From: an uncultured Myxococcales bacterium
GTDB lineage: Bacteria > Myxococcota_A > Polyangia > Polyangiales > Polyangiaceae
DNA length: 64,000 bases
Assembly: GCA_937872925.1 (NCBI GenBank)
Contig: CALMUT010000198.1
Coordinates: forward strand, 1 to 64,000
Direction of reading: 5' to 3'
This document shows, in pieces, positions 2,422 to 33,087 of this stretch. The notes under the pieces were generated by a model that worked only from the letters and a program-made list of their open reading frames with translations, did not search any database and had not been told where the DNA came from. The position numbers and the translations under genes were made by a program. Each line of letters starts with the position of its first letter. Position 1 is the stretch's first letter.

Positions 2422-5400
2422 ATGCACAGACGTAACCCGGTCGCTTCAATGCTCGCAGGTGCCGCTTTTGGACGCCACGTTGGCGTTTGGCGAATCGCCG
2501 CTGCACTGCACGACGAGGCCGTGGGCAAAGAAGCGCCGTCCATCACCGTGGAAGCGACGCGAGAGTTCGCACCGTGGGACGATGTTGTCGAAAACTGGAG
2601 CGACGGCAGACTTCATGTATGGCAGGTGAAATCGGGAGCGGTTTTGGCACCTGAACTGGTGAGCCTCGTGACGAAGCTCCATGACGGTTTGAAGGAAGCA
2701 AACGCCACGCTCGTAACCAGGACAGCCCCTCGGATTCCCGGCATCGGCGAGCTTGGGGTGCTGGATGAGTTACTGCAGTCCGTTCGTGCGGGCGCGGGCA
2801 TCGAAACATCGTCGGCTTGGTTCAAGTTTCTATGTGCGAATTGCGGGGGATCCGAGGGCGCCAAGGGTGTGGCCCGACGCTTAAACCTGGTGTTCGCAGG
2901 CAACCTTGAGGCGGTCCGGGACCGGGCACGTGACCATCTGGAACAGGTGTACGAAGCGGACGTGCTCGCGGCGGTGCTCGACCGTCTGTGCACGACGGTG
3001 GAGGTAACAACGGGTTCGGCAATGACTGTCTCGTCGCTTCGTCAGACCGCACTTCTGGATTTTGAAACTCGGCGCCGAGCCACGCTGGCTGTCGACATCC
3101 AAGCGGTTCGGCGGCGGTACATTCGGACCGTACAGTCCGCTGTCGAGAGCCGCAGGGTCCTTCGAAACATTCGCCAAGACGGCGTGAAGCTCACCAAAGT
3201 GTGGACCGAGCCACGGTTCTCGACTGCGTCAGGCCATGAGTTCCCAGAGGGCGAGTTGGTCACCAATCTGTCAGCCCACGGCCTGAACCTACTGTCGGCC
3301 CCCGCGGGAAGCGGGAAGACCGAAATCCTTGCGCGCCTTGCCGCGACGCTCGCCGGGCACGCCCATCAGTCGCCTGAAGCCGCCTTGCCGATCCTGCTTC
3401 GGACAATTGACGCGCGAGGTGCCACGGACGAAGCGATCGCTGCGGCCGCCGATTCGGTGGCGCCGGGAGTGGGCGAGCTACTCCAGCAGCTTCTGCGACG
3501 ACCAGACACAGCCTGGGGCGTGCTCATCGATGGTGTCGACGAGACTGAAAACGGCGCAGAAACGGTGGATGCCCTGATGCGCCGGTTCCCCAACGCGATG
3601 ACCGTGGCAACCGCTCGGCCGTCCATCGGCCGGACCCTTGAGCCTGCAGCGATGTTCCAGATTGAACCCTGGACCCCGGCCGATGCGGAGTTGTTCATTG
3701 GCTCGATGGCGGAGCTGAACCCAACGAGAGCAGAGACCTTGCGGAAACTGGATATCGGCGCAGGCGTCCTGCACCGTCCTCTGACGGCGACGCTCGCCGC
3801 AATCGTCGCGTTGCGCGACGACGTCGTTCCGCTGAATCGTGCGCAGCTGTTCCGGTCCGCCATTCCCGCGCTTGTGGAGCAGTGGGCCGAGCGCAGAAAT
3901 GCGCGCGTCCAGTGGGCGGCCGTGGCTGACGATGTTCGACAATTCGCGCTTGAGTGTGTTCGGGGGGACCGCGCTATCGTGTCCGAGACTGAACTGCAGC
4001 GCTTTGCGCACCGCGCGGCGCCCGACCGCTCCAACGGGCTGCGGGTCGCCGTTGAAGTCGACTTTGGGCTGCTTGTACCCACGACCAGCGGATACGAGTT
4101 CTTGTTGCGCGGACTAGCGGAATACCTTGCCGCCGAACTCCTTTCGCGATCGGACGACGACACATTGGACGCGGCCGCTCACAGTTGGGGAAGCGAGGCC
4201 GCGCGCCAATCGCTGGATCTGATTGCCGACGAAGATCCGGCCAGGTTTTGCCAGCTTGTGCGAACGATTCTGGCGAACACGGTCGGGTCGGACCCACCTT
4301 TGCACGAGGCGTTGCGCGCACTGAACGTGGTGATCCGAGCGCTGAGTGATGTCGGGGACATTGGCCGGCCCGTGGCAGCCGAAACAGCAGCCATCTGCGC
4401 AAAGTTAGTTGGCAACGAGCAATCACCCTGGCGCGCGGACCGGGTTGCGGAGGCGGCGGCTGAGCTGGCCGCTCACGGTGGACCGTGTTGGGCCGAATTA
4501 GCGGAGCACGTTGTCCGCACACTTCGCGATCCGCGCGACCCAGGCGATTGGTATGCTGCCCTGGGCGATAGTCCACCGGAAGCATGGATTGATTCTCTTT
4601 TTCACTGCGACCCAAGGGTGAGGTCCGAGGGCGTCCGGAGGCTGCGCCCGCACGTGGATGAACCGAAGGTCGCGGCGTGCCTGATGGCGATGCTATTGGA
4701 TGCGCCTGCTCACGCCGCCCTTGCCCGCCCACCAGCCGTGGAGGCCGGCCTGGCGCTGCGGCAGGCAAATCGGCTCGGTCCGGTCGCCGAATATCTTGAC
4801 TCCATTCGCCACCTGTCGGAGCAGCCCGGACAACTCGCGCCCACGGCCGCGTCGGTCGCACTTCGGCCGAGCGAGCAGGCGGCGATTGTGCTTGCTCGGG
4901 CGCTGCGAGCCGGCGCCGCCGCGGGATATTCTCCGGTCGAGGTGGTGGTTGACCTCTCGGTCTCACCGCAAGGCGTGACGACGCTGGACGCGGAATGGCC
5001 CGATTGGCGAACGTATCGCCCAACACCTTCCCACCGACCGAGTCCCGCCACCGCGACATCCACGCCACCACCGCCGTCAAGCTGGACGCGTCGGAGGCTG
5101 GTCCGGCTAGCTCAGAAGGCGATCGCTCGCGACAAGGCCCTAGCCGCCACGCTGTTCCAGGCAATGGGCGATGACGCGCAAGATCTCTACCTCGAAGCGG
5201 TGTGCGAAGCTGGCCTTCTTCGTCCAGCGGAGGCAAGTAAGCTGCTGGAAATTCCGGGCGACCGTTTCCCTCGGCTCAGTGAGCGGGCGCAAGAGCTCTT
5301 GGCGCTGGCTGCGATTCGGCACACCGATGTACGCCAAGAGCTCGTGAAAAAGTGGGCCGAGTTCGCTTCGGGCGAATCATGGCGATCGAGTATCTACCCT

Positions 5401-6336
5401 GGCCGAGCACTGGAGCGCCTTGTCGCGGACGGGGACCCTGAAGCCGTGAACGTTTATGCGGAGTGGATCCCGCGGTCGCTGTACGTTTCGGGCATGTGGG
5501 GCGGTGCCAGCCCAGACAGCCGCGTGTTCAAGCACCAGCCGGTAGCTCTGGCGGCGCGAAGCGCCGTTGACAGGGCGTGGCAACGCGCGACCGAGGGTTT
5601 TCTAGACGACAAACAAGAGCGCAATTGGCTATTCCCCGGATCGGCCGCTTCGGTGTTGAAACATCTTGCTCCATGCTGGCGAGATGGCGGACACATCGTC
5701 GATGGACTCATCCAGTGGTTGACTGCACCAGATCCAAACCAGCAGACTGCAGCGGTCACAGGGCTCGAGCGCGCTACGCTGACCAACGCGCAAAACGATG
5801 TACTGCGCACCGCTCTCCGCGCGGCACTACGCACACCCGCCAGCACTTTCCACGTCGTCACGATCCCGGCGTTGGTACGCTTAGCGGTCGCCCAAGGCAT
5901 CGCTAACGACCTTCGTCTGGAACTCAGGGCTCTGCTTGAGCAGCGCGGTCCCGCAGCAATCCCCGCCGCCTGCGCGCTGAGTGGTTTGGTGTCAAGGGAA
6001 CAAGCTCGCGAGCTCTCCGTCGCTGCGGCCTTGAGAGACGTCGACACCTTCGACAGCTTCGATTCCGTTGAGGTCGGAGAGCTCATCGCCCTGGCCCCGG
6101 AAGCCTGGGCAAGCGGCCTAGTTCGACAGGTCGAGCGCTACGGTCCGTCCAACATGGGCGCAATAGTCCCGGTTTTTGAACTCCTTCCGGCGCGCGAGAA
6201 AAGAGAAGTCGCTCATCGTCTACGCAGCTTCGCGCAAGCCCCGGTTCTACCGTGGTTTAGCAACGGGCTCACAGGTGAAACCTATCGCCCGTCGGACCTC
6301 GTTGAGCGATTGTTGTTTGATGCTGGACTCTCCTGA
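2422..6336 (+). CDS. Large NACHT/STAND-type ATPase with putative N-terminal nuclease
   Basis: This is a 1304-residue protein. Residues 1 to about 120 resemble the DUF4297/Cap4-type restriction-endonuclease fold: an acidic stretch ending in HVWQVKSG, where QVK would be the last part of a D...(E/Q)xK active site. A P-loop follows near residue 294 (SAPAGSGKTEI) and a Walker B near 365 (GVLIDGVDETE), as in NACHT/STAND NTPases. The C-terminal 700 residues are helical, Ala/Leu-rich and HEAT-like, a plausible sensor. By analogy with bacterial NACHT proteins I infer an anti-phage protein in which a sensed trigger causes oligomerisation and activates the nuclease. It stands alone between the broken hsdM and operon A. 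The nuclease assignment is weaker than the ATPase assignment. Confidence 0.75.
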   Translation: MHRRNPVASMLAGAAFGRHVGVWRIAAALHDEAVGKEAPSITVEATREFAPWDDVVENWSDGRLHVWQVKSGAVLAPELVSLVTKLHDGLKEANATLVTRTAPRIPGIGELGVLDELLQSVRAGAGIETSSAWFKFLCANCGGSEGAKGVARRLNLVFAGNLEAVRDRARDHLEQVYEADVLAAVLDRLCTTVEVTTGSAMTVSSLRQTALLDFETRRRATLAVDIQAVRRRYIRTVQSAVESRRVLRNIRQDGVKLTKVWTEPRFSTASGHEFPEGELVTNLSAHGLNLLSAPAGSGKTEILARLAATLAGHAHQSPEAALPILLRTIDARGATDEAIAAAADSVAPGVGELLQQLLRRPDTAWGVLIDGVDETENGAETVDALMRRFPNAMTVATARPSIGRTLEPAAMFQIEPWTPADAELFIGSMAELNPTRAETLRKLDIGAGVLHRPLTATLAAIVALRDDVVPLNRAQLFRSAIPALVEQWAERRNARVQWAAVADDVRQFALECVRGDRAIVSETELQRFAHRAAPDRSNGLRVAVEVDFGLLVPTTSGYEFLLRGLAEYLAAELLSRSDDDTLDAAAHSWGSEAARQSLDLIADEDPARFCQLVRTILANTVGSDPPLHEALRALNVVIRALSDVGDIGRPVAAETAAICAKLVGNEQSPWRADRVAEAAAELAAHGGPCWAELAEHVVRTLRDPRDPGDWYAALGDSPPEAWIDSLFHCDPRVRSEGVRRLRPHVDEPKVAACLMAMLLDAPAHAALARPPAVEAGLALRQANRLGPVAEYLDSIRHLSEQPGQLAPTAASVALRPSEQAAIVLARALRAGAAAGYSPVEVVVDLSVSPQGVTTLDAEWPDWRTYRPTPSHRPSPATATSTPPPPSSWTRRRLVRLAQKAIARDKALAATLFQAMGDDAQDLYLEAVCEAGLLRPAEASKLLEIPGDRFPRLSERAQELLALAAIRHTDVRQELVKKWAEFASGESWRSSIYPGRALERLVADGDPEAVNVYAEWIPRSLYVSGMWGGASPDSRVFKHQPVALAARSAVDRAWQRATEGFLDDKQERNWLFPGSAASVLKHLAPCWRDGGHIVDGLIQWLTAPDPNQQTAAVTGLERATLTNAQNDVLRTALRAALRTPASTFHVVTIPALVRLAVAQGIANDLRLELRALLEQRGPAAIPAACALSGLVSREQARELSVAAALRDVDTFDSFDSVEVGELIALAPEAWASGLVRQVERYGPSNMGAIVPVFELLPAREKREVAHRLRSFAQAPVLPWFSNGLTGETYRPSDLVERLLFDAGLS

Positions 6337-6532
6337 CGTGACCGCTCAGGTCAGCCACTCCCTCACTCGGTTTGGACAACATTCGTCGTTGGGCAGCCAA
6401 AGAGCTCGCGTCCGGGGGACAGCCTCGGGACAGCCGACCCAGAGATCTCTTGCAACGCCTCGCCGACGCGTGCCCAGGACGCTTCGCGGAATAGCGCGTC
6501 CGCACCCGCGCGTTCCAATGGTGACGGTCAAC

Positions 6533-9234
6533 ATGGGGTCTAAGACGCGCCAAAACCTCGCTCCTGCGATTCGAGCCAGCCTGAACGCGAAACGAGCGCG
6601 GCTGCTCGCTCGCCCGCTGATTGCGCAGGTGCAACGCGCGAGCCCGAGTGTCGACGCGGACCAAACGGTCGAGGGACCGGATGTATTTCGCGCATTGCAG
6701 AACGCCGCGCGAGACCTCCGACCGACGGCCCTCGACGCATGGCGTGAAGACCCCGACAACGGCACTTGCCGCGTGCAGATCTGCATCGACTACGACGACA
6801 GATGGCGCGGGTGCGAAAAGGAAGTGCTCGAAACGATCAAGAGCACCATCGAGAGCAACGTCGCGTTTCTTACGGAGGAGCAGAAGTCGCTGCTAGAGCG
6901 CTCACCGGCCGAGTTCCTGGCCTTGTCGCCAAGGCCGCAGGTCACCGAATTGGTCGCGTTCGCGACGGATGACATTGCAGGAAGCACTCGCGTCGTAGAA
7001 CTCACGTTCGCGGCGCCACCGGAGTCTCCCGAGCATGTGCGCTACGTTGCTATTGTACCCAACCTCGTGCAGCTCGAGCGCCAACTCGACGCACTCCATA
7101 CGGTCGAAACCGCCGAAGGCGATGGCCCACTCGGACCGCTGCGCGCTCTCATCGGAGCGAGCGACGATGTGGCACTTGGAGGCGATTCGACTGGCGGGGC
7201 GCTCACAGACCGGGCGTCATGCAAACAGCTCGACGAATTCCAACTGGAATGCGTGCACAAGGCATTGGCGACGCCCCACTTTGCGGTCATCGAAGGCCCG
7301 CCAGGATCAGGCAAGACGACCGTGATCACGACAATAGTCCGCGACGCCCTGGCCAGTGCCGGTCGAGTGCTGATCGTCTCGCCAACTCACGTCGCCGTGG
7401 ACAACGTGGTGGAAAAGCTGGTCTCCGTGCAGGGCACGAGCAATGACCTTCTGGCTCCTCACGGCCTACCGCTGCGCTACGCGGCGCGCGTCACGAAGCT
7501 GTCGGACAAGGCTGCGGAGTACTGGGTCGGTGCCCGAAAACAAAGCCGGGGCGCCACGATCGCCCGCCGCGTGGAAGTGCGGCTGAGGGACGCCATTCCA
7601 TTTGCAAGATCGCTCTTTGAGCAGGTGGACCCAGACGCCGCGCGCCAGCCGCGGTGTCGAACGTGCAGTCCGTGGTCTGCGGCACGCCCATTGGCGTTTT
7701 GTCGTACGACCTCGTCAAAGACTCCGTCCCCGGCAGCTTTGACCTCTTGGTAGTGGACGAGGTCTCCAAGATGACCCTGCCGGAGTTCCTGGCCATCGCA
7801 GTCAAAGCACGCCGTTGGGTCGTTGTGGGCGATCCGGCACAGCTCCCTCCGTACAACGACACCGAAGACAACGCGGTGACTCTCGATGACGTTGTGCCCG
7901 CCACGCCTGAACTCGCTTGCTCGACCGCAACCCTCCTCGCGAGGACACGGCCCGCTGTGCGAAGAGAAAACGCGCTGGTGGTCGTGTCTTCGGAGCCACC
8001 GAGGGCGGTCGCGGCGATCCGAGCGCACTTGCGCTCTGTGCTGCCAGGTGGGTTCCCAGATGTTGGCCTGATCGACGCGGATTCGACACCAGGGATCGTT
8101 GTCTGCGCGGAAGCCGACGCCGAAACCGCCTACGACACGCTGGTGCGGTCGGCCACGCACGAGAACGTGCGCGTCCTGGTCGAACGCGGAATCGCAGCCC
8201 GTCGGCCTGAGAATGGCTCTGACCAGACCCTGGTGGAGTGCCGCGAGCGCGCGCATGCTGCGCTGTTCGAGCAAGCCTTCAGCGCTTATCACTCGCAACC
8301 CTGGGCTCGCCGAACTGGCCAGCAGCTCGGAGCCAATGGCTTCGAGCTGCGCATGAAGGCGTGCACACCGTCTATGGCCGTGCTGGACGCCGTATTTCCA
8401 CAGCAGCCCGGCTTTGACGAAGCGGTTCGCGGCGTCGCCCAGGCCATATGCACCCGCTTCGCCATCAACACGGTCTCCGTGTACGACTGGCTTACCGGCA
8501 TCGCCACAACAGACCAAGACTGTTCCCCATTGCGTGAGTTGCGCGGGCTGACCTCCGCGGCGCTCCAGGGCGCGATCCGACCGTACGTCGGCACATTGAA
8601 GAAGCAGTACCGAATGCATCCAAGTCTGTCCCGGGTGCCCCGAGAGTTGTTCTACTTCGGCGAGGCGCTCTTCGACGGGCGCGCCGACCCGCAATCGGAC
8701 TGTCGGGTGACGCTGGTGCAGGTCGAGTCGGAGGCCGCACCGGGCGAATTCAATGAAGAAGAGGTCGGTGCCGTGTGCACGCTACTCGAATCGCTCGGCC
8801 AAGGCGAAACAGCGCACCGACCCGCACCCAGCGTAATGGTCATCACGCCCTATCGCAGGCAAGAAGCAAGGCTTCAGGACGCCATCAATGCACTGCCCGC
8901 CCGCCACGCACCCGGCAGCGGCGAGATCGAAGTTTGCACGTTGGACCGCTGCCAAGGGCGTGAAGCAGACTACGTGTTCATTTCTCTGGTGCGCAGCCGC
9001 GCCACGGCGTTCTTCGAGATGCCAAAGCGGTGGAACGTGGCTCTGACTCGTGCCAAGGAGGGCCTCCTTATCGTTGGCGACATCGACAGCTACATCGAGC
9101 AGGCCCGGAGTGCGCGCCGCGCCGCCCGTGGAAGGCCGCCGAAAATGAGCCTGCTCGCGCGCGTCATCGAGGCTTACGCCGCCCAGATCCGCGAACCGGC
9201 GCTCAGGCGCCGGCACGGAAACGGTCAATCGTGA
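6533..9234 (+). pseudogene. Upf1-like SF1 helicase, frameshifted copy (operon A)
   Basis: This is a superfamily 1B (AAA_11/AAA_12) helicase. The first frame carries Walker A (IEGPPGSGKTTVITTIV) and motif Ia (VSPTHVAVDNVVEKL). The second frame, open from 7654, carries DEVSKMTLPEF, GDPAQLPPYND, QYRMHPSLSR, LDRCQGREADYVF and WNVALTRAKEGL. It aligns end to end with the intact 903-residue paralogue at 29061, which fixes the start at ATG 6533 (MGSKTRQN against MDTNQRQN). The frame changes between about 7630 and 7655, where the paralogue has a few more residues. All motifs survive but on two frames, so no full-length helicase can be made unless the shift is a sequencing error. It overlaps the next gene by 4 nt. 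Confidence 0.85.
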
Positions 9235-9768: not shown

Positions 9769-11364
9769 GTGACCACCAAGAAGAACCGCGCAGTCGGCCG
9801 CCGGCGGCGCACGCCGCAACAAGAGCAAGAACGTACCAGTCGTCACCAGCTCGCACTTGCCTGGAAATCATGGCCGCTACAGGCGAACGTCGAGGACCTC
9901 GGCGAAGACTTGCTCTTTCAACTGTACGAGGATGGCAAGTACACCAGTCTGTCATTCTACGTGCAATTGAAGAGCGCGAGCGACCTTGCACGCTTCATCA
10001 AGAAACGCACACCGGATTCTGTCACGTATCGTCTGCCAACGAAGGATCTACTTCATTGGACAGACTCGACCCCCACCGTGATTATCGTGGTTTGGGACGT
10101 CCAAAAGGCGGAGGGGGTGTGGATTGACGTCCCGACCGCGATCAAGCAGCTAGACGCGAGGACTCCCGGCTGGCGCTCAAAAGGCGAGACGGTGCAAGTA
10201 CTGCTACCTCGTACGCAAGGCACCGATGTTGCCGGTCGTGCGAAACTACGCAGGCGGCTCGCCCAGTTGGCGTTCCCAACGCTGGCGCACGGCAGGAAAA
10301 TTCGAGTCACCCCCAGTTTTTCGTTCCCTAAGACGCCCTCAGGCAGGGCAGCGCACGAAGCGCTAACGCGCGCGATCGATGAAGGCGGAACCGCCACCAT
10401 CGAAAAAGAACACATTACAGCCTTCAGAATCCCCGGATGGTGGCAACGAGCCAGCGGCTCCATTGAGCCTGACAGCATCACGATCACGTCGCGGGCGCGG
10501 CCGCTGACGTTTCCCCTCCGACTGCAATGCGTCTGCCCTACGTCGTCGGCGTCGGTGGACATCCTACTGCGTACTACAAGGGCCGGCCTCAAGAGAATTA
10601 CGCTTGAATCTACTCCGGGCGCTGGACCGATGAATATGACGCTGATCTTGCACACGCATGAGAAGCGGGTCGAGACCACTCTCGACTTTGGTTTTCCGTG
10701 CAAAAAGGTTGACGATTCGTTGGCTCTGGCTCGACTCCTGATCACCCATAAACGGGGTGCTCCCATTCGGCTGGTACTGCCGGGAGGAACACCCCTTGGA
10801 GAAGTACAACTCGACCCCGACGCCGGGCGTCCCCTGGCCGAGCTCCTGCGGTGGGAAAAGACTCTCCAGCAGCTAAGCTTCATCCAGGACCGCGTGAGCA
10901 GGTACGGCGCGTTTGATGTCCGCAATCTTGCGGACGCCGACATCCCAACGATCGTCCGCGTGCACAAGTTGCTTCAGACAGGAACGTATCGCACGGACAT
11001 GACCTTCAGCATGGACATGGTGCGGCGGCCGAAACTACCCCCACCCGGCCCAGACGACGGCAAGCATCCGCTAACACTGAAGATCAACCCGTTTGGCGAA
11101 GAGAAGTTGCTCGGTGTGCGCATCCCGTTCGGCGAGGTCACTCTTGAGTTCATCAATCCCGTGGAGCTTCTCAAGCAGATGCGCGCAGCTCGGCCTTCCA
11201 AACGCAAGCCCACTACAATTTCGGTATCAGGTACGCCCGTTCTTCAGCGATTCCATGACTGGGAACCTCCCAAATCCGGACCAGAGGTCGAGCCGTGCCG
11301 GCCGGCGACAGAAAGTGCAGCCAAACAGCCGCGCAGGCGCCGAGCGGTGAACAGAGCCGCCTGA
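9769..11364 (+). CDS. DUF4365-like putative nuclease (slot 3 of operon A)
   Basis: The product has 531 residues and starts at GTG 9769. After a basic N-terminus, residues 20-110 show DLGEDLLFQLY, then a beta strand ending in FYVQLKS, then VIIVVWDVQ. This arrangement (acidic residue, QxK) is typical of DUF4365/PD-(D/E)xK nuclease-fold domains. The remaining 400 residues are mixed alpha/beta without a motif I know and may sense or dimerise. It sits between the small helicase partner and the AAA+ ATPase. In operon B the same position holds an unrelated CHAT-like protease, so this looks like an exchangeable effector. Nuclease activity is inferred from fold signature only. Confidence 0.6.
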   Translation: MTTKKNRAVGRRRRTPQQEQERTSRHQLALAWKSWPLQANVEDLGEDLLFQLYEDGKYTSLSFYVQLKSASDLARFIKKRTPDSVTYRLPTKDLLHWTDSTPTVIIVVWDVQKAEGVWIDVPTAIKQLDARTPGWRSKGETVQVLLPRTQGTDVAGRAKLRRRLAQLAFPTLAHGRKIRVTPSFSFPKTPSGRAAHEALTRAIDEGGTATIEKEHITAFRIPGWWQRASGSIEPDSITITSRARPLTFPLRLQCVCPTSSASVDILLRTTRAGLKRITLESTPGAGPMNMTLILHTHEKRVETTLDFGFPCKKVDDSLALARLLITHKRGAPIRLVLPGGTPLGEVQLDPDAGRPLAELLRWEKTLQQLSFIQDRVSRYGAFDVRNLADADIPTIVRVHKLLQTGTYRTDMTFSMDMVRRPKLPPPGPDDGKHPLTLKINPFGEEKLLGVRIPFGEVTLEFINPVELLKQMRAARPSKRKPTTISVSGTPVLQRFHDWEPPKSGPEVEPCRPATESAAKQPRRRRAVNRAA

Positions 11365-11432
11365 AACGGAATCCGCGCAACTCGCCCTCCCCGCCGCCCG
11401 CGGGCTATCCTAGGGTCCCGTCCAGGTCGCAC

Positions 11433-12416
11433 ATGGCAACCGCTGCACAAATCAAGGCTCTCATCGAGAGCCAGCTGGAAGGCGACGACCGTCAATTCAT
11501 GACAGTCGCGATGCAGATCGCTGCCCATGCCGCGCGCAAGGGCCAGGGCCGCCTCGCGGACGACATCCGAGCACTGGTGGAACAGGCACGCGAGCGCAGC
11601 GAGCACCGACGCGCGTCCAAGCCCGTTCCCATCGCCGCAGCCCGTGGCGAGCTCGAGGGACTTCTTGGCGTCTCCTACCCAGAAGTGCGGCTTTCAGAGC
11701 TCGTGCTGGACGGCCCGACGCGACAGAGGCTCGAACGCATCGTGCAGGAGTACCGCGCGCGCTCAAAGCTGCAGGAGCACGCGCTGGAGCCGAGACGGAA
11801 GCTCTTGCTCGTCGGACCGCCCGGCTCTGGCAAGACGTACACGGCGTCAGCGCTGGCGGGCGAATTGAACCTCCCATTGCTTGTGATCCGCCTGGACGGG
11901 CTCATCACCAAGTTCATGGGCGAGACGGCAGCAAAGTTGCGCCTTGTCTTCGACAGCATGAGCAAGACCCGCGGCGTGTACCTGTTCGACGAGTTCGATT
12001 CCATCGGTGCGGCTCGTGGCGAGCGGGGCGACGTCGGGGAGATCCGCCGTGTGCTCAATTCGTTTCTTCAGTTCATCGAGCACGACGACTCCGACAGCTT
12101 GGTGGTGGCTGCCACCAACTTCGGCCCATCGCTTGATCCGGCACTTTTTCGCAGATTCGACGACATCGTCGAGTACAGCCTACCGACCGCGCGGGAGGTC
12201 GAGGAGTTGCTCAGGTCGCGCCTCTCACCGTTCAGCACCGGGGGGATGAACTGGAAGCAGGTCATCAGCGAGGGAGTGGGCCTGAGCTACGCCGATCTTG
12301 CCCGCGCATGTACCGACGCGGCGAAGGATGCCGTGCTCGCCGGAGGAACGACCATCACGACAACCGGGCTGCTGGCGTGTCTCGGCGAACGCAAGCACTT
12401 GCCAGTAATGAAGTAG
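11433..12416 (+). CDS. ietA: AAA+ ATPase, IetA-like (operon A)
   Basis: The 327-residue protein starts at ATG 11433. The N-terminal 100 residues are helical and the rest is a classic AAA+ core: Walker A LLVGPPGSGKTYTAS near residue 128, the pore-loop-like region KFMGETAAKLRLVF, Walker B GVYLFDEFDSI near 183, sensor VVAATNFG and the arginine-finger segment LFRRFDDIVEY. An S8 subtilase gene begins 7 nt downstream. This ATPase plus subtilisin pairing is that of IetAS, a known anti-phage/exclusion system, in which the ATPase presumably controls the protease. The paralogue at 33088 has the same length and is nearly identical in the core. Confidence 0.85.
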   Translation: MATAAQIKALIESQLEGDDRQFMTVAMQIAAHAARKGQGRLADDIRALVEQARERSEHRRASKPVPIAAARGELEGLLGVSYPEVRLSELVLDGPTRQRLERIVQEYRARSKLQEHALEPRRKLLLVGPPGSGKTYTASALAGELNLPLLVIRLDGLITKFMGETAAKLRLVFDSMSKTRGVYLFDEFDSIGAARGERGDVGEIRRVLNSFLQFIEHDDSDSLVVAATNFGPSLDPALFRRFDDIVEYSLPTAREVEELLRSRLSPFSTGGMNWKQVISEGVGLSYADLARACTDAAKDAVLAGGTTITTTGLLACLGERKHLPVMK

Positions 12417-12423
12417 GTACCGG

Positions 12424-14907
12424 ATGGCGGGGGAGCAGGACGACAGGCGCCGGCATTTCGTGCTCGGCGCGAACGGCCAGACTGAACCTTTCACTTCGCC
12501 TCGTTCGGGGCGCGAGCGCTTGAAGCCAATTCCAACTGCGGATCGAAAATCGCACGCCGAAGTATTGCTTGCGCAACTCGAACTGATCAAACAGGCCATG
12601 GCCGACGTCACGGCAGAACGAGCCGCGCACCAAATCGAAGAGCAGGAGGGACTGGTGGTCGAGTTCGAGGCCGTCTCAGGTTTTGAACTCGCGCTTGAGT
12701 CCCTCGACGCACGAGACCAGGGCGTCGAGTTGCTATCGATCAAGGAAGGCCCGACCACACGCGCCACGGCGTTTATTCCCCACGGCAAGCTTGGCTGGCT
12801 GGAGCGAAAGCTTGAGAAGTTCCGTGACGAGGACACGCCCAAAGGTGCGCCCAAGAATGCGAAACTTGTCTCGCGCCTGGCGGCCATCCGCAGAGCAGCG
12901 TTGCGTGCCTTTTGGACTGACGACGAAGCGCTTTTTCCGGACGACGGCACGAACATTTGGTGGGAAGTCTGGCTACGTGCGGGCAATGATCGCCGGCGCG
13001 TTCTCGATTCGTTCGAACTCCACGCGGGACGTTTTGGGCTAAAACTGAAGCGCGGCGAAGTGGTCGAGTTCATCGACCGAACGGTGCTGCTGGCGTGGGG
13101 GCCACCGGAAGCGATGCGTGCTTCTGTCGAATTGCTGGATTGCATCGCCGAACTGCGCAAGGCGAAGGAGCTTGCGGGGGAGTTCTTCGATGTGCCGGGA
13201 GAGTTCCAGCGCGACCTTGCAGCAGACCTTCGAAAGAGGCTCGTTGTGAGCCGCTCCAACCCGCCGGCGGTCTGCCTGCTGGACAGTGGGGTGAATGACC
13301 ACCCACTTCTTGAGGGGTTCATCGCGCTCCGCGACACCGCCCTGGCGAAGTCCTTCGGCGTCGGTGACAGAGACGGCCACGGCACGGAGATGGCTGGCAT
13401 TGCACTGTTTGCCGACGAGCTTGCCGACCACCTCACAAGCGCGCTGCCAGTGGCTATCGACAACGTCGTGGAATCGGTGAAGTTGTGGCACGAGACTTCG
13501 CCAACGGATCCAGAGTTCTACGGTCACGTGACCGCACAGGCTGCCTATGCCGCCGAAGCCAGCGCGCCTGAACGCCAGCGCGCATTCTGCCTGCCCGTCA
13601 CCACGAGGGACTCAAGAGACCGGGGCGCACCCTCATCCTGGTCCGCCAGGGTGGATGCACTGGTAACGGAGGCGGTCCAGGACGACGCGCACGCCCGCGT
13701 TCTCGTGGTGTCTGCCGGCAACGTCATCGAGGCCTCGTGCCGGACCGGCCCGTACCCGGATGTCAACCGCGCAGACGGGATCCATGACCCGGGCCAGGCG
13801 TGGAACGCGCTTACCGTGGGCGGATTCACCAATCGAGCCACGTTGAACGCCAACCGATTCCCGGGATGGACTCCGGTCGCTGATGCCGGCGCGCTCAGCC
13901 CCACCAGCACGACGAGCCTCACCTGGAACGACAGCTGGCCCTTGAAGCCCGATGTAGTTCTGGAAGGTGGGAATCTCGCCACGGACCCGAAAACCAACGA
14001 AGCCGACACAGTGGATGATGTCCGACTTCTCACCACGTTCCATCACCCGACCCAACGGTGGTTCACGACAACGGGCGACACGAGCGCCGCCGCCACACAG
14101 GCCGCGAGAATGGCTGCGCTGCTCCTCGGCGAGTGCCCGGGCCTTTGGCCCGAGACCGTCCGCGCGCTGCTCTTACACTCGGCCGAGTGGACCGAGCGGA
14201 TGCTCCGCGAGTTTCCAACCGACAACGACAGACGGAACCGGCTGCGATGTTACGGCCACGGTGTTCCGAGCCTCGAGCGAGCCCTCTGGTCAGCGCGTGA
14301 CCAGCTCACTCTCATCATCGAGGACGAACTAGTCCCGTTCCGCAAGGATCCATCGGGAATGAAGACCAACGAGATGAACCTGCACGAGTTGCCCTGGCCC
14401 ACCGACGTGCTTCAGGGCCTTGGTCACACCCCAGTGGAACTCCGAGTCACGCTCTCGTATTTTGTCGAACCAAACCCTGCGCGCCGTGGCTGGCGCTCTC
14501 GATTCGTATACCCATCCCACCAGCTACGTTTCGACGTACGCCGTGCGCACGAGACAAGTGGGGCGTTCCGTGCGCGAGTGAACAAGCAAGCGCAAGCTAA
14601 CGGGCATCAACGCAGGGGTGGTTCTGACTCCGCGTGGGACCTGGGCCCCAACCTCCGGAACAAAGGCTCGGTGCATCAGGACACCTGGCGCGGCACCGCA
14701 GCCGACCTCGCTGCACGCGGCGTGCTGGCCGTCTACCCGGGCGGGTCGGGTTGGTGGAGATCCAGGCCCGCGCTCAAACGCTGGGGGAGCCCTGCGAGGT
14801 ACGCGCTCGTGGTTTCGATTCGGACGCCAGCAGTAGGCGTGGATGTGGACATCTACGCCGCCGTTGAAGCCCAGGTGAGCGTGCCCGTGGCGATCGCTGG
14901 ACGGTAG
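12424..14907 (+). CDS. ietS: S8 subtilisin-like serine protease, IetS-like (operon A)
   Basis: The protein has 827 residues and no signal peptide, so it should be cytoplasmic. The catalytic triad is visible: Asp287 in CLLDSGVND, His319 in DGHGTEMAG and Ser554 in TGDTSAAATQAARMA. The spacing between His and Ser is longer than in secreted subtilases. The first 280 residues form an accessory domain and the C-terminal 200 are beta-rich. It follows the AAA+ ATPase by 7 nt and is the last gene of operon A. By analogy with IetAS it is probably the toxic effector, restrained or delivered by the ATPase. Its cellular target is unknown. Operon B has lost this gene except for the first codons. Confidence 0.85.
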   Translation: MAGEQDDRRRHFVLGANGQTEPFTSPRSGRERLKPIPTADRKSHAEVLLAQLELIKQAMADVTAERAAHQIEEQEGLVVEFEAVSGFELALESLDARDQGVELLSIKEGPTTRATAFIPHGKLGWLERKLEKFRDEDTPKGAPKNAKLVSRLAAIRRAALRAFWTDDEALFPDDGTNIWWEVWLRAGNDRRRVLDSFELHAGRFGLKLKRGEVVEFIDRTVLLAWGPPEAMRASVELLDCIAELRKAKELAGEFFDVPGEFQRDLAADLRKRLVVSRSNPPAVCLLDSGVNDHPLLEGFIALRDTALAKSFGVGDRDGHGTEMAGIALFADELADHLTSALPVAIDNVVESVKLWHETSPTDPEFYGHVTAQAAYAAEASAPERQRAFCLPVTTRDSRDRGAPSSWSARVDALVTEAVQDDAHARVLVVSAGNVIEASCRTGPYPDVNRADGIHDPGQAWNALTVGGFTNRATLNANRFPGWTPVADAGALSPTSTTSLTWNDSWPLKPDVVLEGGNLATDPKTNEADTVDDVRLLTTFHHPTQRWFTTTGDTSAAATQAARMAALLLGECPGLWPETVRALLLHSAEWTERMLREFPTDNDRRNRLRCYGHGVPSLERALWSARDQLTLIIEDELVPFRKDPSGMKTNEMNLHELPWPTDVLQGLGHTPVELRVTLSYFVEPNPARRGWRSRFVYPSHQLRFDVRRAHETSGAFRARVNKQAQANGHQRRGGSDSAWDLGPNLRNKGSVHQDTWRGTAADLAARGVLAVYPGGSGWWRSRPALKRWGSPARYALVVSIRTPAVGVDVDIYAAVEAQVSVPVAIAGR

Positions 14908-17990: not shown

Positions 17991-18986
17991 ATGAGCGATA
18001 GCCAGGTCCGCAAGCCGCTGATTCTCGTAAAACCCACCAGCGAGATTGAGCGCACCACCCAAGAAGGGGCGTCGGGCGCAGCGACCGACGTAACCAGCAC
18101 TTCGGCGGTGGAAGCGGCCACAGCGGCAAGCGCGGTTGCAGCGACCGGTGCAGCCCTAGCCAGTGCCCTCGTGCTGACTCCGGCAGTCGGACTGCCACTC
18201 TTCGGCGCCAAGCTGCTGTACGACGCCATTCGGAAAGGGCGCGATGATCGCGCCGAGGATAGCCCGGCGAGCGAACCTGACGCGAATGAGCACCGCGAGC
18301 ACGAGGCCGCGTTGGCCGAGCACGCGATGATGATTGGCTCCGCTCTTGAACGTAGTGAAGAAGTGCTTGTGGTCACGCTCGCGTCCATGCCGGATGGGTT
18401 GAACTTCCCGCCGGGTCATCCACTGCCAGCCAGGTACTACCGCCGACATCCCCTCAATGAAGACACGTACATCCCAATCGAAATGTACGACCGGCTGCTG
18501 CTTGAGGAACGCGAGGCCGAGCTAATACGCCTGCTGGTAGACCTCGGCGCCACTGGCATCGAAATCTCGAAAGCCGGAAACAATTCGCGTTCCTTGTCCG
18601 GCGGCGCTAAGGCCGAAGCCAGCGGCGTGAGCGGCGCGGAGATCGCGGCCGGCGGCGAGAGCACTCGCGCCGCCCGTGATCTCAGGGTCTTCGAGCTTCG
18701 CGGTATCCCGTGGACGGCGGAGATGCAGTTCGATCCCACGGCGTACAAGTGGCTGGAGTACGAGCCCGCTTGGAAGGCCGTGATGCATGCCCGGCGGGTC
18801 GGCGCCTGCGTCACCGCCAGCATCGAACTGCACCAAGAGACCAGCTTCTCGCTCGCGGCTTCCGCAAAGGCGACCGGTATTCTGGCAGACGTGGGCCTAG
18901 CGAGCGGCGGGGCGAATGCTGAGTACGACAGTCGCCAGGAAACCGCAGTTCGGTTCCGGGTCAGTTTTACGCCGGCAGAGACCTGA
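17991..18986 (+). CDS. Unknown protein with an Ala-rich hydrophobic segment
   Basis: The 331-residue protein starts at ATG 17991 with MSDSQVRKPLILVKPT. Residues 35-75 are an Ala/Val-rich hydrophobic stretch (VAATGAALASALVLTPAVG) that could be one or two membrane helices. A charged region and a conserved-looking soluble domain follow, including PLPARYYRRHPLNEDTYIP and RLLVDLGATGIEI. The C-terminus is Ser/Ala/Gly-rich (LSGGAKAEASGVSGAEIAAG). It resembles no family I can name. Its place just upstream of hsdM in a defence island, together with a possible membrane anchor, would suit a membrane-associated effector, but that is speculation. Confidence 0.6.
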   Translation: MSDSQVRKPLILVKPTSEIERTTQEGASGAATDVTSTSAVEAATAASAVAATGAALASALVLTPAVGLPLFGAKLLYDAIRKGRDDRAEDSPASEPDANEHREHEAALAEHAMMIGSALERSEEVLVVTLASMPDGLNFPPGHPLPARYYRRHPLNEDTYIPIEMYDRLLLEEREAELIRLLVDLGATGIEISKAGNNSRSLSGGAKAEASGVSGAEIAAGGESTRAARDLRVFELRGIPWTAEMQFDPTAYKWLEYEPAWKAVMHARRVGACVTASIELHQETSFSLAASAKATGILADVGLASGGANAEYDSRQETAVRFRVSFTPAET

Positions 18987-19017
18987 CCTCGGTGTTGTAT
19001 TAGCCTCGCAGTGCAAT

Positions 19018-21090
19018 ATGACCCAGACCCAAACCACCACGACCAGCGCCGCGCCACCGAGTGCGCGCACCTTCGCGAGCTTCAGCGAAGCCACGAGCTT
19101 CATCTGGTCCGTCGCTGACCTCTTGCGCGGGGACTACAAGCAGGCTGACTACGGCAAGGTGATCTTGCCGTTCACTGTGCTTCGGCGGCTCGACTGCGTG
19201 CTGAAGGACTCGAAGGGCAAGGTGCTCGAGAAGCACAAGGCGCTGAAGGGCGGCAAGATCAAGGACCCGGAGCCGATCCTCAACAAGCTGACGGGCGTCC
19301 CCTTCCACAACGTCTCCAAGCTCGACTTCGAGAGGCTCAAGGACGACCCGAACCACATCGCGCAGAACCTCACCAGCTACGTGAAGGGCTTCAGCCAGAA
19401 CGCTCGGGACATTATCGAGCGGTTCAAGTTTTCGGACCAGATCGCGAAGTTGGACGAGTCGAACCTGCTGTACCTGGTGGTCGGCAAGTTCGCGGAGATC
19501 GATCTGCACCCGAAGCGGGTGCCCAATCACGTGATGGGGTCCATCTTCGAGGAGCTGATTCGGCGGTTCTCGGAGCTCTCGAACGAGACGGCGGGTGAGC
19601 ACTTCACGCCGCGTGAGGTGATTCGGCTTATGGTCAACCTGCTGTTCGTGGAGGACTCGGAGGCGCTGACCAAGCCGGGCATCGTGCGCACGCTCTACGA
19701 TCCGGCGTGCGGGACAGGCGGCATGCTGAGCGTGGCTGAGGAGTACCTGCGGGAGCTGAACCCGAACGCGCGGCTGGAGGTGTTCGGGCAGGAGCTGAAC
19801 GACGAGTCCTACGCCATCTGCAAGGCTGACATGATGATCAAGGGGCAGAACCCCGAGAACATCAAGCGGGGCAACAGCTTCAGCGAGGATGGGCACCCGA
19901 ACCGCAAGGTCGACTACCTGCTCAGCAATCCGCCCTTCGGCGTGGAGTGGAAGAAGGTCGAGAAGGCCGTGCGGGACGAGCACGAGACCCAGGGGCACGC
20001 TGGCCGCTTCGGCGCGGGGCTGCCGCGCATCAACGACGGGTCGTTGCTCTTCTTGCAGCACATGGTCTCCAAGATGAAGCCGGCGGATGCCAAGGCGGGC
20101 GAAGGCGGCAGCCGGCTGGCCATCGTGCTGAACGGCTCGCCGCTGTTCACGGGGGACGCGGGGTCGGGCGAGAGCGAGATCCGTCGCTGGATCATCGAGA
20201 ACGACTGGCTGGAGGCCATCGTCGCGCTGCCGGACCAGCTCTTCTACAACACGGGCATCAACACCTACGTCTGGGTCGTTACGAACAAGAAGCCCAAGGC
20301 TCGGCGGGGCAAGGTCCAGCTCATCAACGGGGTCGGTTACTTCCAGAAGATGAAGAAGAGCCTGGGCAACAAGCGGAACGAACTTTCGCCCGAGCACATC
20401 GACGAGCTGACGCGGATCTGCTGCGACGCCGCCGAGGGCAAGCACTCCAAGATCTTCGACAACGACGACTTCGGCTTCCGCCGCATCGTGGTGGAGCGGC
20501 CGCTGCGCCTGAGCTTTGAGGCCTCGGCCGAACGTCTCGAGTTGCTCCGGGAACAGAAGGCCTTCGGGAACCTCGCCAAGAGCAAGAAGAAGGGGGCGGC
20601 GGGGCAGAAGGAAATCGAGGCCGGAAAGGCTGCCAAGGCGGAGATCATCGACGCGCTCGGGCGCTTGCCGCAGGACAAGGTGTGGAAGAACCGCGACGCC
20701 TTCGAGGCCGAGCTCGACAAGGCGCTTCGCGCGGCCAAGGTGAGGCTCGCTGCCCCGGTGCGAAAGGCGGTATTGGCCGCGCTCTCGGAGCGGGACGAGG
20801 CGGCGGACGTGTGCACCGACGCGAAGGGCAACCCCGAGCCGGACACCGACCTGCGCGACAACGAGAACGTGCCGCTGAAGGAGGACATCCACGAATACTT
20901 CGCACGGGAGGTGCTGCCGCACGTGCCCGATGCGTGGATCGACGAGAGCAAGACCAAGGTCGGCTACGAGATCCCGTTCACCCGACACTTCTACGAGTAC
21001 AAGCCGCTACGCCCGCTCAATGAGATCGAGGCGGACATCCGGAAGCTGGAGGAGGAGATCCAAGGGATGTTGGGGGAGGTGTTGGGGTGA
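19018..21090 (+). CDS. hsdM: Type I restriction-modification DNA methyltransferase subunit M
   Basis: The 690-residue protein is an N6-adenine methyltransferase. The N-terminal helical domain (residues 20-200) includes the VADLLRGDYKQADYGKVILP signature. AdoMet motif I is DPACGTGGML near residue 231 and catalytic motif IV is NPPF near 304. The C-terminal part (from about 520) is charged and longer than in many HsdM proteins. ATG 19018 matches the known family start. It overlaps hsdS by 3 nt, so M and S are coupled. It should assemble as M2S to methylate the site chosen by HsdS, protecting host DNA from HsdR. Confidence 0.95.
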   Translation: MTQTQTTTTSAAPPSARTFASFSEATSFIWSVADLLRGDYKQADYGKVILPFTVLRRLDCVLKDSKGKVLEKHKALKGGKIKDPEPILNKLTGVPFHNVSKLDFERLKDDPNHIAQNLTSYVKGFSQNARDIIERFKFSDQIAKLDESNLLYLVVGKFAEIDLHPKRVPNHVMGSIFEELIRRFSELSNETAGEHFTPREVIRLMVNLLFVEDSEALTKPGIVRTLYDPACGTGGMLSVAEEYLRELNPNARLEVFGQELNDESYAICKADMMIKGQNPENIKRGNSFSEDGHPNRKVDYLLSNPPFGVEWKKVEKAVRDEHETQGHAGRFGAGLPRINDGSLLFLQHMVSKMKPADAKAGEGGSRLAIVLNGSPLFTGDAGSGESEIRRWIIENDWLEAIVALPDQLFYNTGINTYVWVVTNKKPKARRGKVQLINGVGYFQKMKKSLGNKRNELSPEHIDELTRICCDAAEGKHSKIFDNDDFGFRRIVVERPLRLSFEASAERLELLREQKAFGNLAKSKKKGAAGQKEIEAGKAAKAEIIDALGRLPQDKVWKNRDAFEAELDKALRAAKVRLAAPVRKAVLAALSERDEAADVCTDAKGNPEPDTDLRDNENVPLKEDIHEYFAREVLPHVPDAWIDESKTKVGYEIPFTRHFYEYKPLRPLNEIEADIRKLEEEIQGMLGEVLG

Positions 21091-22382
21091 AGCTCAGTCC
21101 TGGAGACCGGCATTCGCCTTGGCGAGGTGACCTCCCGACTTCTTGGCCTATACGGCCCCTGAAGTACTTGGCCAAGCTCGACCTCCACAAGCTACCCGAA
21201 TCTACAGATGCCGATTACTCGTTTCGCTATGTCGATATCTCAAGCGTCACGTCACTCGGTCAGATCGTGCCGTCGGACCCCATTCGCTTTGGCGATTCTC
21301 CCTCGCGCGCCCGCAAGATTCCGCGTGCTGGTGACACCATCGTGTCGACAGTGCGAACGTACTTGAAAGCAATCGCACACTTCGACGAAGTGCCAACGGA
21401 TGTCGTCTGCTCGACGGGTTTTTGCGTCGTCACTCCCGGCGATGATGTGCACGCCCGCTTCCTCTACCACTGGCTGCGGTCTGACCACATGGTCGACGAG
21501 ATTTGCGCCCGGTCGGTTGGAGTCAGCTATCCGGCGATCAATCCATCCGACTTCGCTGGATTGCCCACGCCTGCTCCCGCGCTGGAGATCCAACGCGCCA
21601 TCGCCTCCTTCCTCGACCGCAAGACCGCCGCCATCGATGCGCTGATCGAGAAGAAGGAGCGGCTCATCGAGCTGCTTCAGGAGAAGCGCCAGGCCCTCAT
21701 CACCCAAGCAGTGACCAAAGGCCTCGACCCCACCGTGCCCATGAAAGACTCGGGCATCGAATGGCTGGGGGAGATTCCGAAGCATTGGAAGGTGACGCGA
21801 TTCCGTCGGTTTTGCGCCCTGTCGCAGGGCCTTCAGATCCCTCGCGAAGAGCGCTTCAGCGAGCCTGGACCGAGGCGAGCCCGATACATCACAGTTCAGT
21901 CGCTGAATGCGGGCGCGGATTTCAACGGATGGGAGTACATCGAAAATCCACCGGCACGAGTGCGCTGCACCTTCGATGACATTTTGATGGCAAGAACGGG
22001 CGCGACCGGAGAAGTGATCAGTGGCGTCGACGGCGCGTTCCACAACAACTTCTTCAAAGTCCAACTACAGGGCAGCTCAATGTCGAAAGAGTACGCAGTC
22101 GCGCTGCTGCGTTGCCCACGCGTAAAGGAACATTTGCTCATGCTGGCGGGGACCACAACCATCCCCGATCTCAATCATGACGAGTTTCTCGACACTCCAG
22201 TTGTCCTGCCGCCTCAGTCCGAGCAAAACGCAATCGCGCGCCATGCCAAGAAGACAGAAGACGACTTCGAACTCCTTGTGCGGATGTCCGAGCAGTCCAT
22301 CGGCGCCTTGCGCGAGTACCGCCAAGCCCTGATCACCGCCGCCGTCACCGGCAAGATCGATGTCGGCGAGGAAGCGGCATGA
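21087..22382 (+). CDS. hsdS: Type I restriction-modification specificity subunit S
   Basis: The 431-residue HsdS starts at GTG 21087, overlapping the hsdM stop. It has two target recognition domains (about 10-150 and 225-360). Each is followed by a conserved helix, the central one carrying FLDRKTAAIDALIEKKERL and the linker SGIEWLGEIPKHWKV, and the distal one SIGALREYRQALITAAV. The two TRDs differ from each other, so a bipartite asymmetric target is expected. The gene overlaps the downstream DUF262 gene by 4 nt, which places that gene inside the R-M operon. Confidence 0.95.
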   Translation: MKLSPGDRHSPWRGDLPTSWPIRPLKYLAKLDLHKLPESTDADYSFRYVDISSVTSLGQIVPSDPIRFGDSPSRARKIPRAGDTIVSTVRTYLKAIAHFDEVPTDVVCSTGFCVVTPGDDVHARFLYHWLRSDHMVDEICARSVGVSYPAINPSDFAGLPTPAPALEIQRAIASFLDRKTAAIDALIEKKERLIELLQEKRQALITQAVTKGLDPTVPMKDSGIEWLGEIPKHWKVTRFRRFCALSQGLQIPREERFSEPGPRRARYITVQSLNAGADFNGWEYIENPPARVRCTFDDILMARTGATGEVISGVDGAFHNNFFKVQLQGSSMSKEYAVALLRCPRVKEHLLMLAGTTTIPDLNHDEFLDTPVVLPPQSEQNAIARHAKKTEDDFELLVRMSEQSIGALREYRQALITAAVTGKIDVGEEAA

Positions 22383-24730
22383 GCGAGGTTCATCGCATTG
22401 ACGGTCAGGCTCGAACCGTGCGTCAGCTTCTCGACGGCGCTCGCTACACCATCGACTTCTACCAGCGCGAGTACGCATGGCAGGAACGCCAAGTACGTGA
22501 GCTCCTCGACGACCTGACCGGGAAGTTCCAAGACTTCTACGAAGAAGGGCACGAGCGAAACCAGGTCGCTTCGTACGGGCACTATTTTCTCGGCTCGGTC
22601 GTGATCAGCAACAAGCGCGCCCAGAAGTTCATCGTGGATGGCCAGCAGCGGTTGACGACGCTCTCGCTGTTACTCATCTACTTGCACCACCTCCAGAAAG
22701 ACCGCGAGGACAAGGTTCCGGTCGAGACGCTGATCTTCAGCTCGAAGTACGGGCAGCGCAGCTTCAACCTGGACGTGGAGGACCGCGTAGCCTGCATGGA
22801 CAAGCTTTTTGCCGGAGAAACTTTCGACCCCGAAGGGGCCAACGAGTCGGTTCGCAACATTGCGGCGCGCTACCAGACCATCACGGAGCACTTCCCCGAA
22901 GAAGTCGCCGAGCGAGCGCTACCCTTCTTCACGGACTGGCTGCTGGAGAACGTGCACCTGGTCGAAATCGAGGCGTACTCGGATGAAGACGCCTACACGA
23001 TCTTCGAGACGATGAATGACCGTGGCCTGTCCCTCAGCTTGCCGGAGATGCTGAAAGGCTACGTGCTGGCGAACATCCAGACCGAAGCGAAGCAGCGCGA
23101 GGTCAACACGCTCTGGAAGCAGCGCATGCAGCAACTCAAGGAGGTCGGGAACGAAGAGGACGTCGACTTCTTCAAGAACTGGCTGCGCGCCCGCCACGCG
23201 GAATCCATCCGGCCGGGCAACAAGGGCGCGGAGAACCGAGACTACGAGCGTATTGGTTCCGAGTTCCATCGCTGGGTTCGAGACCAGCGAGACAAGCTGC
23301 AGCTGAACGGCAGCGACAGCTTCGTGCGCCTCGTCAGTCGTGACTTGGACTTCTACGCCCGGCAAACACTGCGCATTCGCAGCGCGGCCTTCAAGCTCAC
23401 CGACGGCCTCGAGTCCATTCGCTACAACGAAGACCGGGGCTTCACGACGCAAACCCAGGTCCTACTGTCCGCGCTCTCCCCGGATGATTCCCCGGACGTC
23501 ATCAAGGCGAAGCTCGCGGTCGTTTCCGACTACCTCGACATATGGTTCACCCGGCGCGTCTGGGGCTCTCGCTCCACGGCACAGCGTACCGTGCGCTACG
23601 GCCTCTTCAATCTCTCCAAGGCCTTACGGGACAAGAGCGTGCCGGAGCTAGCGACGCACCTCCGGGGACTTTTGGACGAAGAGCAGGACACGTTCGCCAA
23701 GCATCCGGACTTGAGAGCGCACACCCAGAACTTTTATCAAGTGCGCCACATCCTGGCGCGACTGTCCCGCTGGGTGGATGAGCAATGTGGGGTCGCGTCT
23801 CACTACGAAGACTACACGGCCGGGGGCAAGGGCAAGCCGTTCGAGGTCGAGCACATTTGGCCGGACATGCACGACCGTTTCAGGGAGTGGTTCCCGCACC
23901 CGAGTGACTTCGAGCGGGCCCGGAACCGCATCGGTGGGCTGGTGCTACTGCAGCAAGGCCACAATCAGAGCCTCGGCGCCCTGCCCTACGAAAAGAAGCG
24001 CGACGCCTACGTGGCGCACGGTCAGAGCCTCCTGACACGGAGCCTCCATCCCCTGGCCTACCAGAACAACCCGGCGTTCAACGCTTTCATTGAGCGGACT
24101 GGGTTGGAATTCCGACCGGTCGATCAATTCGACCCTGCGGCCCAGCAGGAGCGGCAGGAGCTCTACCTCCGAATAGCGGAGTGGGTATGGAATCCTTCAC
24201 GTCTTGACCTGGACGGTGTGAAGCCCCCCACCCACGAGCCCTTGCTAGAGCCGGAGGAACAGAGTGAGCTGAAGGTCGAGAAGTCAGTGCGCTACGAGCT
24301 TCGAAAAGCGTTCTTCACCGAGCTGATCGAGCGGGCGAAAGCACAGGCTCAACCGCACGGACATCTCTCGCCGACCATGTACAGCTGGCTCGGCGCGCGT
24401 CAGGACGGGTTCTGGTGGAACTACGCCGTCACACAGGACGCGACGCGAGTGTGCCTCGACATCTCGACATTCGGGCGAGAGAAGAACAAGGCACTCTTCG
24501 ACCAGATCGCGGTCAAGAAGAAGGACATCGAGGCCGCGTTCGGAGGGAAGCTCGACTGGCTTCGAATGGACGACAAGAAGGGCAGTCAGATTTCGGTGAC
24601 CCTGCCGGGCGGCTACGTCGACGAGACCCAGCGGACCAAAACAGTCACCACGGCCGTCCAGACGATGGCGAAATTCTACGCCGCCATCAGGGAGCACGCG
24701 CTCGGAGCGAAAAAGGCGGTAGGGCTGTGA
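22379..24730 (+). CDS. DUF262/DUF1524 GmrSD-like restriction protein
   Basis: The 783-residue protein has an N-terminal DUF262 domain (ParB/Srx-like NTPase fold) with FYQREYAWQERQVRELLDDL at residues 22-41 and the signature DGQQRLTTL near residue 86. A DUF1524 HNH-type nuclease motif (FEVEHIWPDMH) sits near residue 490. The C-terminal 150 residues look like a DUF5655-type domain (FWWNYAVTQDATRVCLDIS). This is the layout of fused GmrSD type IV enzymes that attack modified phage DNA. It is embedded between hsdS and hsdR with 4-nt overlaps on both sides, so it is co-expressed with the type I system. Such a pair could restrict both unmodified and modified invaders. Confidence 0.88.
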   Translation: MSEVHRIDGQARTVRQLLDGARYTIDFYQREYAWQERQVRELLDDLTGKFQDFYEEGHERNQVASYGHYFLGSVVISNKRAQKFIVDGQQRLTTLSLLLIYLHHLQKDREDKVPVETLIFSSKYGQRSFNLDVEDRVACMDKLFAGETFDPEGANESVRNIAARYQTITEHFPEEVAERALPFFTDWLLENVHLVEIEAYSDEDAYTIFETMNDRGLSLSLPEMLKGYVLANIQTEAKQREVNTLWKQRMQQLKEVGNEEDVDFFKNWLRARHAESIRPGNKGAENRDYERIGSEFHRWVRDQRDKLQLNGSDSFVRLVSRDLDFYARQTLRIRSAAFKLTDGLESIRYNEDRGFTTQTQVLLSALSPDDSPDVIKAKLAVVSDYLDIWFTRRVWGSRSTAQRTVRYGLFNLSKALRDKSVPELATHLRGLLDEEQDTFAKHPDLRAHTQNFYQVRHILARLSRWVDEQCGVASHYEDYTAGGKGKPFEVEHIWPDMHDRFREWFPHPSDFERARNRIGGLVLLQQGHNQSLGALPYEKKRDAYVAHGQSLLTRSLHPLAYQNNPAFNAFIERTGLEFRPVDQFDPAAQQERQELYLRIAEWVWNPSRLDLDGVKPPTHEPLLEPEEQSELKVEKSVRYELRKAFFTELIERAKAQAQPHGHLSPTMYSWLGARQDGFWWNYAVTQDATRVCLDISTFGREKNKALFDQIAVKKKDIEAAFGGKLDWLRMDDKKGSQISVTLPGGYVDETQRTKTVTTAVQTMAKFYAAIREHALGAKKAVGL

Positions 24731-28880: not shown

Positions 28881-29060
28881 CGGTGATGGTCTTCAACGTT
28901 CCCCGTCGAAGAGACCCCTGATGTTGTCGGCTGTGCCGGCGCGCGGCCCGGGCTAGCCGCAGTTCGCATCCACCTCGCGGACGCGACCCGTCCGCCCAGC
29001 GCTTCGGAATACCCAAGCGACCCGCGGGCGTTCTCAGCACACAGGCCGGTGCCACACAGC

Positions 29061-33002: not shown

Positions 33003-33087
33003 GCCCAGCATTGTCGAGCGGCACAGCATCCAATTCGGCCTCCCCATCGCGTACGAGCTATCCTATGTTCATCCTGAGGAACCCGCG

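What the first reader, a model, noticed from the sequence alone, without database searches (positions are those of the whole stretch)
2422..6336. Giant NACHT-type ATPase with a possible Cap4/DUF4297-like nuclease head
A P-loop (APAGSGKTE), Walker B (LIDGVDE), a long HEAT-like C-terminus and an N-terminal HVWQVKSG motif fit a nuclease-effector NACHT defence protein. The 700-residue tail has no recognised domain and may hold a new sensor.
Basis: partly seen in the sequence, partly recalled or inferred. Interest (0 to 1): 0.62.

Follow-up and report, generated by a model that had tools for sequence, protein, structure and literature searches.

The report
Lone nuclease-like NACHT defence protein
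A bacterial defence island holds one very large immune-receptor-like protein with a proven NACHT switch domain, a probable DNA-cutting head and a helical tail of unknown target; the layout is already known from other bacterial antiviral proteins, but I could find no relatives of this head and tail.

Summary
In detail: window 2422-6336 is one coding ORF of 1304 aa with HVWQVKSG (65-72), APAGSGKT (293-300), LIDGVDE (368-374) and TARP (397-400). The centre is a NACHT ATPase: Pfam E 2.5e-8, above the curated cut-off; NLRC4/NLRP3 lead a fold search. The head matches no family in four libraries. A profile built here from Cap4/DUF4297 heads aligns at D53...QVK70, with 18 of 2000 shuffles scoring as well, so a PD-(D/E)XK nuclease is likely but unproven. 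The tail matches nothing; a low-confidence model is all helical and weakly resembles HEAT/ARM solenoids. No relative of head or tail was found in about 260 genomes of the phylum, in plasmids, phages, or pattern scans of viral and genome contigs. The surroundings are a dense defence island (IetAS, type I restriction, GmrSD, DUF4365). The neighbouring helicase is probably not a partner: five homologues elsewhere show no NACHT neighbour. Best reading: a single-gene, NLR-like abortive-infection protein of the nuclease-NACHT-helical-sensor kind (as bNACHT25/32 and Avs3), an orphan member with a sensor of unknown specificity. About 30 codons in the tail may be locally frameshifted.

The parts
2422..6336 (+). 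NACHT protein gene, 1304 aa
2422..3261 (+). head (residues 1-280): probable PD-(D/E)XK-type nuclease, candidate residues E44, D53/D54, Q68, K70
   Evidence: local profile match D53-S71 to Cap4 heads, shuffle tests; no library match
2578..2637 (+). DDVVENWSDGRLHVWQVKSG (residues 53-72), candidate active-site motif
3262..4161 (+). NACHT module (residues 281-580): Walker A 293-300, Walker B LIDGVDE 368-374, TARP 397-400, EYLAA 567-571
   Evidence: Pfam PF05729; alignment with nine relatives; fold search
4162..6333 (+). helical tail (residues 581-1304), putative sensor
   Evidence: no library match; all-helical low-confidence model; weak solenoid matches
5000..5090 (+). stretch with coding signal in another frame (residues ~860-889): possible compensating indels, assembly error, or P/S/T-rich linker

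Best explanation
A single-gene bacterial NLR-related (STAND/NACHT) antiphage protein. Proposed steps: the helical tail binds an infection signal (inferred); this releases the NACHT module, which binds ATP and oligomerises (inferred from the family; the NACHT itself is shown by homology); the N-terminal PD-(D/E)XK-type heads are brought together and cut DNA, so the infected cell dies or stops growing before the phage multiplies (inferred; the nuclease head rests on motif and position only).
For: NACHT above the gathering cut-off and aligned through Walker A, Walker B (D-G-hDE form), T-x-R-P and EYLAA with nine bacterial NACHT proteins. Fold search led by NLRC4, NLRP7, NLRP3. Head: D53...QVK70 aligns without gaps to the catalytic motif of Cap4/DUF4297 heads; 18 of 2000 shuffles score as high. 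The low-confidence model has helices at 6-33 and 77-92 flanking the motif region, compatible with the order of the PD-(D/E)XK core. Tail all-helical. Neighbours are defence genes: IetA/IetS, DUF4365, PDC-S59, type I restriction-modification with GmrSD. In bNACHT25/32 the same order, PD-(D/E)XK DNase - NACHT - helical domain, gives phage defence that needs the nuclease (PMC12169576); activation of Cap4-type heads by SeAvs3 tetramerisation is described in PMC11291478.
Against: No Pfam or PADLOC model matches the head even at E 10, and none in NCBIfam or PHROGs at a useful level. Head pLDDT about 28, so no fold evidence. No relatives of the head, so conservation of the candidate active site could not be tested. 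Tail model pLDDT 48. The possible frame disturbance in the tail could mean the gene is damaged.
Confidence: 0.62

Rival explanations
1. An NLR-related NACHT defence protein whose head is not a nuclease: the QVK motif is chance and the head is a helical, protein-binding or other effector domain.
For: No nuclease profile matches; the model of the head is mostly helical beyond residue 77; NACHT relatives found carry NNH1 helical heads.
Against: Motif, spacing and N-terminal position all agree with Cap4 heads; shuffles rarely match.
Confidence: 0.25
2. A decaying or mis-assembled gene in a decaying part of the island; no working protein is made.
For: Upstream hsdM is truncated and frame-broken, the downstream helicase is frame-broken at ~7645, and residues ~860-889 show coding signal in another frame.
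Against: A 1304-codon open frame with codon preference in frame over the rest of its length and intact Walker motifs; long decay would have left stops.
Confidence: 0.1
3. The NACHT gene and the following SF1 helicase form a two-gene defence system.
For: Adjacent and on the same strand; a second, intact copy of the helicase lies at 29049-31772.
Against: The second copy and five homologues elsewhere in the phylum show no NACHT neighbour in the stretches read; about 190 bp separate the genes; the local helicase is frame-broken.
Confidence: 0.03

Closest known systems
bNACHT25 / bNACHT32 (clade 6 bacterial NACHT proteins)
   Same: Order of parts: PD-(D/E)XK DNase head, central NACHT, helical C-terminal part; single gene (PMC12169576).
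   Different: No NACHT C-terminal helical model matches the ~720-residue tail here. Direct sequence comparison was not made because their sequences were not to hand.
Avs3 / AVAST STAND nucleases with Cap4-type heads
   Same: Cap4-like nuclease head activated by assembly of a STAND ATPase (PMC11291478).
   Different: No PADLOC Avs model matches; the ATPase here is a NACHT.
NNH1-NACHT(-LRR) proteins (L009, L015 and others)
   Same: NACHT module; best sequence matches found.
   Different: They have NNH1 heads, and L009 has leucine-rich repeats, instead of this head and tail.
Cap4/DUF4297 nuclease family (PF14130)
   Same: D...Q[VI]K motif with the same spacing near the N-terminus.
   Different: No match to the family profile; several residues more between the E-bearing strand and the D pair; the F-x-Y-Q of the first helix reads F-x-x-H.

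Membership tests
NACHT (PF05729) STAND NTPases | profile match over gathering score | tested here: met
   34.4 bits against 26.7
NACHT (PF05729) STAND NTPases | Walker A, Walker B with small residue and acidic pair (DGVDE), T-x-R-P | tested here: met
   residues 293-300, 370-374, 397-400; shared with nine relatives
PD-(D/E)XK nuclease, Cap4/DUF4297 type (PF14130) | profile match over gathering score | tested here: not met
   no match at E 10 and none in the own genome by family search
PD-(D/E)XK nuclease, Cap4/DUF4297 type (PF14130) | D ... (D/E/Q)xK motif with fitting spacing | tested here: met
   D53/D54 to Q68-V-K70
PD-(D/E)XK nuclease, Cap4/DUF4297 type (PF14130) | alpha-beta-beta-beta-alpha-beta core fold | tested here: inconclusive
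   model pLDDT about 28 in this region
PD-(D/E)XK nuclease, Cap4/DUF4297 type (PF14130) | metal-dependent DNA cleavage | not testable with these tools
   needs an assay
bNACHT clade 6 (bNACHT25/32) | NCH1 C-terminal domain | tested here: inconclusive
   no NACHT-associated Pfam match in the tail at E 10; NNH1 hits show that the library holds such models, but the presence of an NCH1 model itself was not checked
AVAST (Avs1-5) | match to a PADLOC Avs model | tested here: not met
HEAT/ARM solenoid tail | repeat-family match or confident solenoid fold | tested here: inconclusive
   no repeat family; solenoids lead the fold search but best E is 3e-3 and TM about 0.2 on a low-confidence model; ungapped self-similarity reached by 1 and 0 of 100 shuffles

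The most novel reading that the evidence does not exclude
The head and the ~720-residue tail, found nowhere else here, are a new effector-sensor pair on a NACHT chassis: a nuclease subfamily outside PF14130 and a solenoid sensor recognising a phage component not seen by known bNACHT or Avs proteins.
Probability: 0.2. Interest if true: 0.5.

Novelty: new member of a known kind. Interest (0 to 1): 0.3.

Why it matters
If it works as proposed it adds one more NLR-like nuclease to bacterial immunity, with a large sensor of unknown target. It shows how far heads and tails diverge around a conserved NACHT core. By itself it does not change the picture of how these systems work.

Tried and rejected
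Relatives: pattern scans of genome contigs with the full protein and with a motif-weighted alignment holding synthetic rows made only to steer the choice of words (only NACHT relatives came back); viral contigs; plasmids and phages by tblastn down to E 10 (nothing reliable); about 260 genomes of the phylum and 121 with the tail alone: no relative. Weak hits L004-L008 were read and are unrelated. Sixty NACHT-bearing stretches of the phylum fetched by family: no shared head or tail. PF14130 in the phylum: three hits, one a Cap4-STAND protein (L111) with the same layout but no sequence relation to this one by BLAST. Larger genome searches failed for machine reasons. Structure of residues 1-640 with nine NACHT rows: usable for NACHT only. 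NACHT-helicase operon: rejected.

Full report
What is there. The ORF at 2422-6336 (+) codes for 1304 aa. It begins at the only in-frame start after the preceding stop. Codon preference supports the frame along almost the whole gene.

Centre. Residues 294-423 match Pfam NACHT at E 2.5e-8, above the curated cut-off. An alignment with nine bacterial NACHT proteins (L009-L017) shares Walker A, VLIDGVDE, T-x-R-P and F...EYLAA. A fold search with the model of residues 1-640 is led by NLRC4, NLRP7 and NLRP3 (best E 1.9e-9), although the model is poor overall (pLDDT 45.8). The alignment rows dominate that result, so it supports the NACHT and nothing else. The two relatives scanned carry NNH1 heads, and L009 leucine-rich repeats; only the NACHT is shared.

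Head. No family model matches residues 1-280. I collected ten Cap4/DUF4297-type heads (L111-L118, L120, L121) and built a profile. It aligns residues 53-71, DDVVENWSDGRLHVWQVKS, without a gap to the catalytic motif EDll.ersDG.fe.vQvKt. hhalign picks the same 19 columns (E 0.13 for one comparison). The total score is matched by 18 of 2000 shuffles. A regex for the motif is found in 2 of 20,000 shuffles, but it was written with the sequence in view and misses four of the ten true heads. Together this makes a PD-(D/E)XK head likely, not established. The structure model is uninformative there (pLDDT about 28).

Tail. Residues 581-1304 match no family. A single-sequence model is almost all helical, pLDDT 48. 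The best fold matches are importins, transportin, PP2A, condensin and other HEAT/ARM proteins at E 3e-3 to 5e-2 and TM about 0.2, which many helical strings may give. Ungapped self-similarity is a little above shuffles. 'HEAT-like' is thus a fair guess only.

Possible damage. From nt ~5000 to ~5090 the reading frame gives EWPDWRTYRPTPSHRPSPATATSTPPPPSSWTRRRL, and codon preference favours the +2 frame there. Compensating indels or an assembly error would explain it; a P/S/T-rich linker would too.

Relatives. None for head or tail in about 260 genomes of the phylum (tail alone in 121), plasmids, phages or viral contigs, nor in two pattern scans of genome contigs, which find only proteins sharing the chosen words. 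'Rare' is therefore safer than 'unique'.

Surroundings. 1658-2305 is the N-terminal part of HsdM, broken in frame. 6530-9204 is an SF1 helicase (AAA_11/AAA_12) broken at about 7645; an intact copy, 61-65% identical, lies at 29049-31772. Then come a DUF4365 protein, IetA and IetS, PDC-S59 and a type I restriction-modification cluster with GmrSD. Five helicase homologues elsewhere lack a NACHT neighbour in the stretches read, so the NACHT gene most likely works alone.

Mechanism. The nuclease-NACHT proteins bNACHT25 and bNACHT32 defend E. coli and need their PD-(D/E)XK head (PMC12169576). In SeAvs3 and DUF4297-HerA, assembly with the ATPase brings nuclease domains together (PMC11291478). By analogy: tail senses, NACHT assembles, head cuts DNA. 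Only the NACHT step is supported by homology here; head activity, trigger and outcome are inference.

Verdict. Observation correct; interpretation partly supported; an orphan member of a known kind, in a genuine defence island.

Noticed in passing
6530-9204 and 29049-31772: Two helicase copies, 61-65% identical; the first is frame-broken at about 7645, the second intact.
   Followed up: yes
11295-12416 and 32974-34071: Two ietA copies, 86% identical in protein; only the first is followed by an ietS subtilase (12424-14907). The second is preceded by a 227-aa protein (32319-33002) with GHS and ACQAG segments that by eye recall a caspase/CHAT fold; Pfam gives no support for that.
   Followed up: partly
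1658-2305: Truncated, frame-broken hsdM remnant directly upstream of the NACHT gene.
   Followed up: partly
5000-5090: Within the NACHT gene, about 30 codons with coding signal in the +2 frame: possible compensating indels or assembly error.
   Followed up: partly
18916-28880: Type I restriction-modification cluster (HsdM, HsdS, GmrSD/DUF4268 protein, HsdR, PDC-S54).
   Followed up: no
L111:4238-8230: 1331-aa protein in a genome of the same class with a sub-threshold Cap4 head and a STAND-like ATPase; its head is 35% identical to plasmid-borne hypothetical proteins of Pseudanabaena and Deinococcus.
   Followed up: partly
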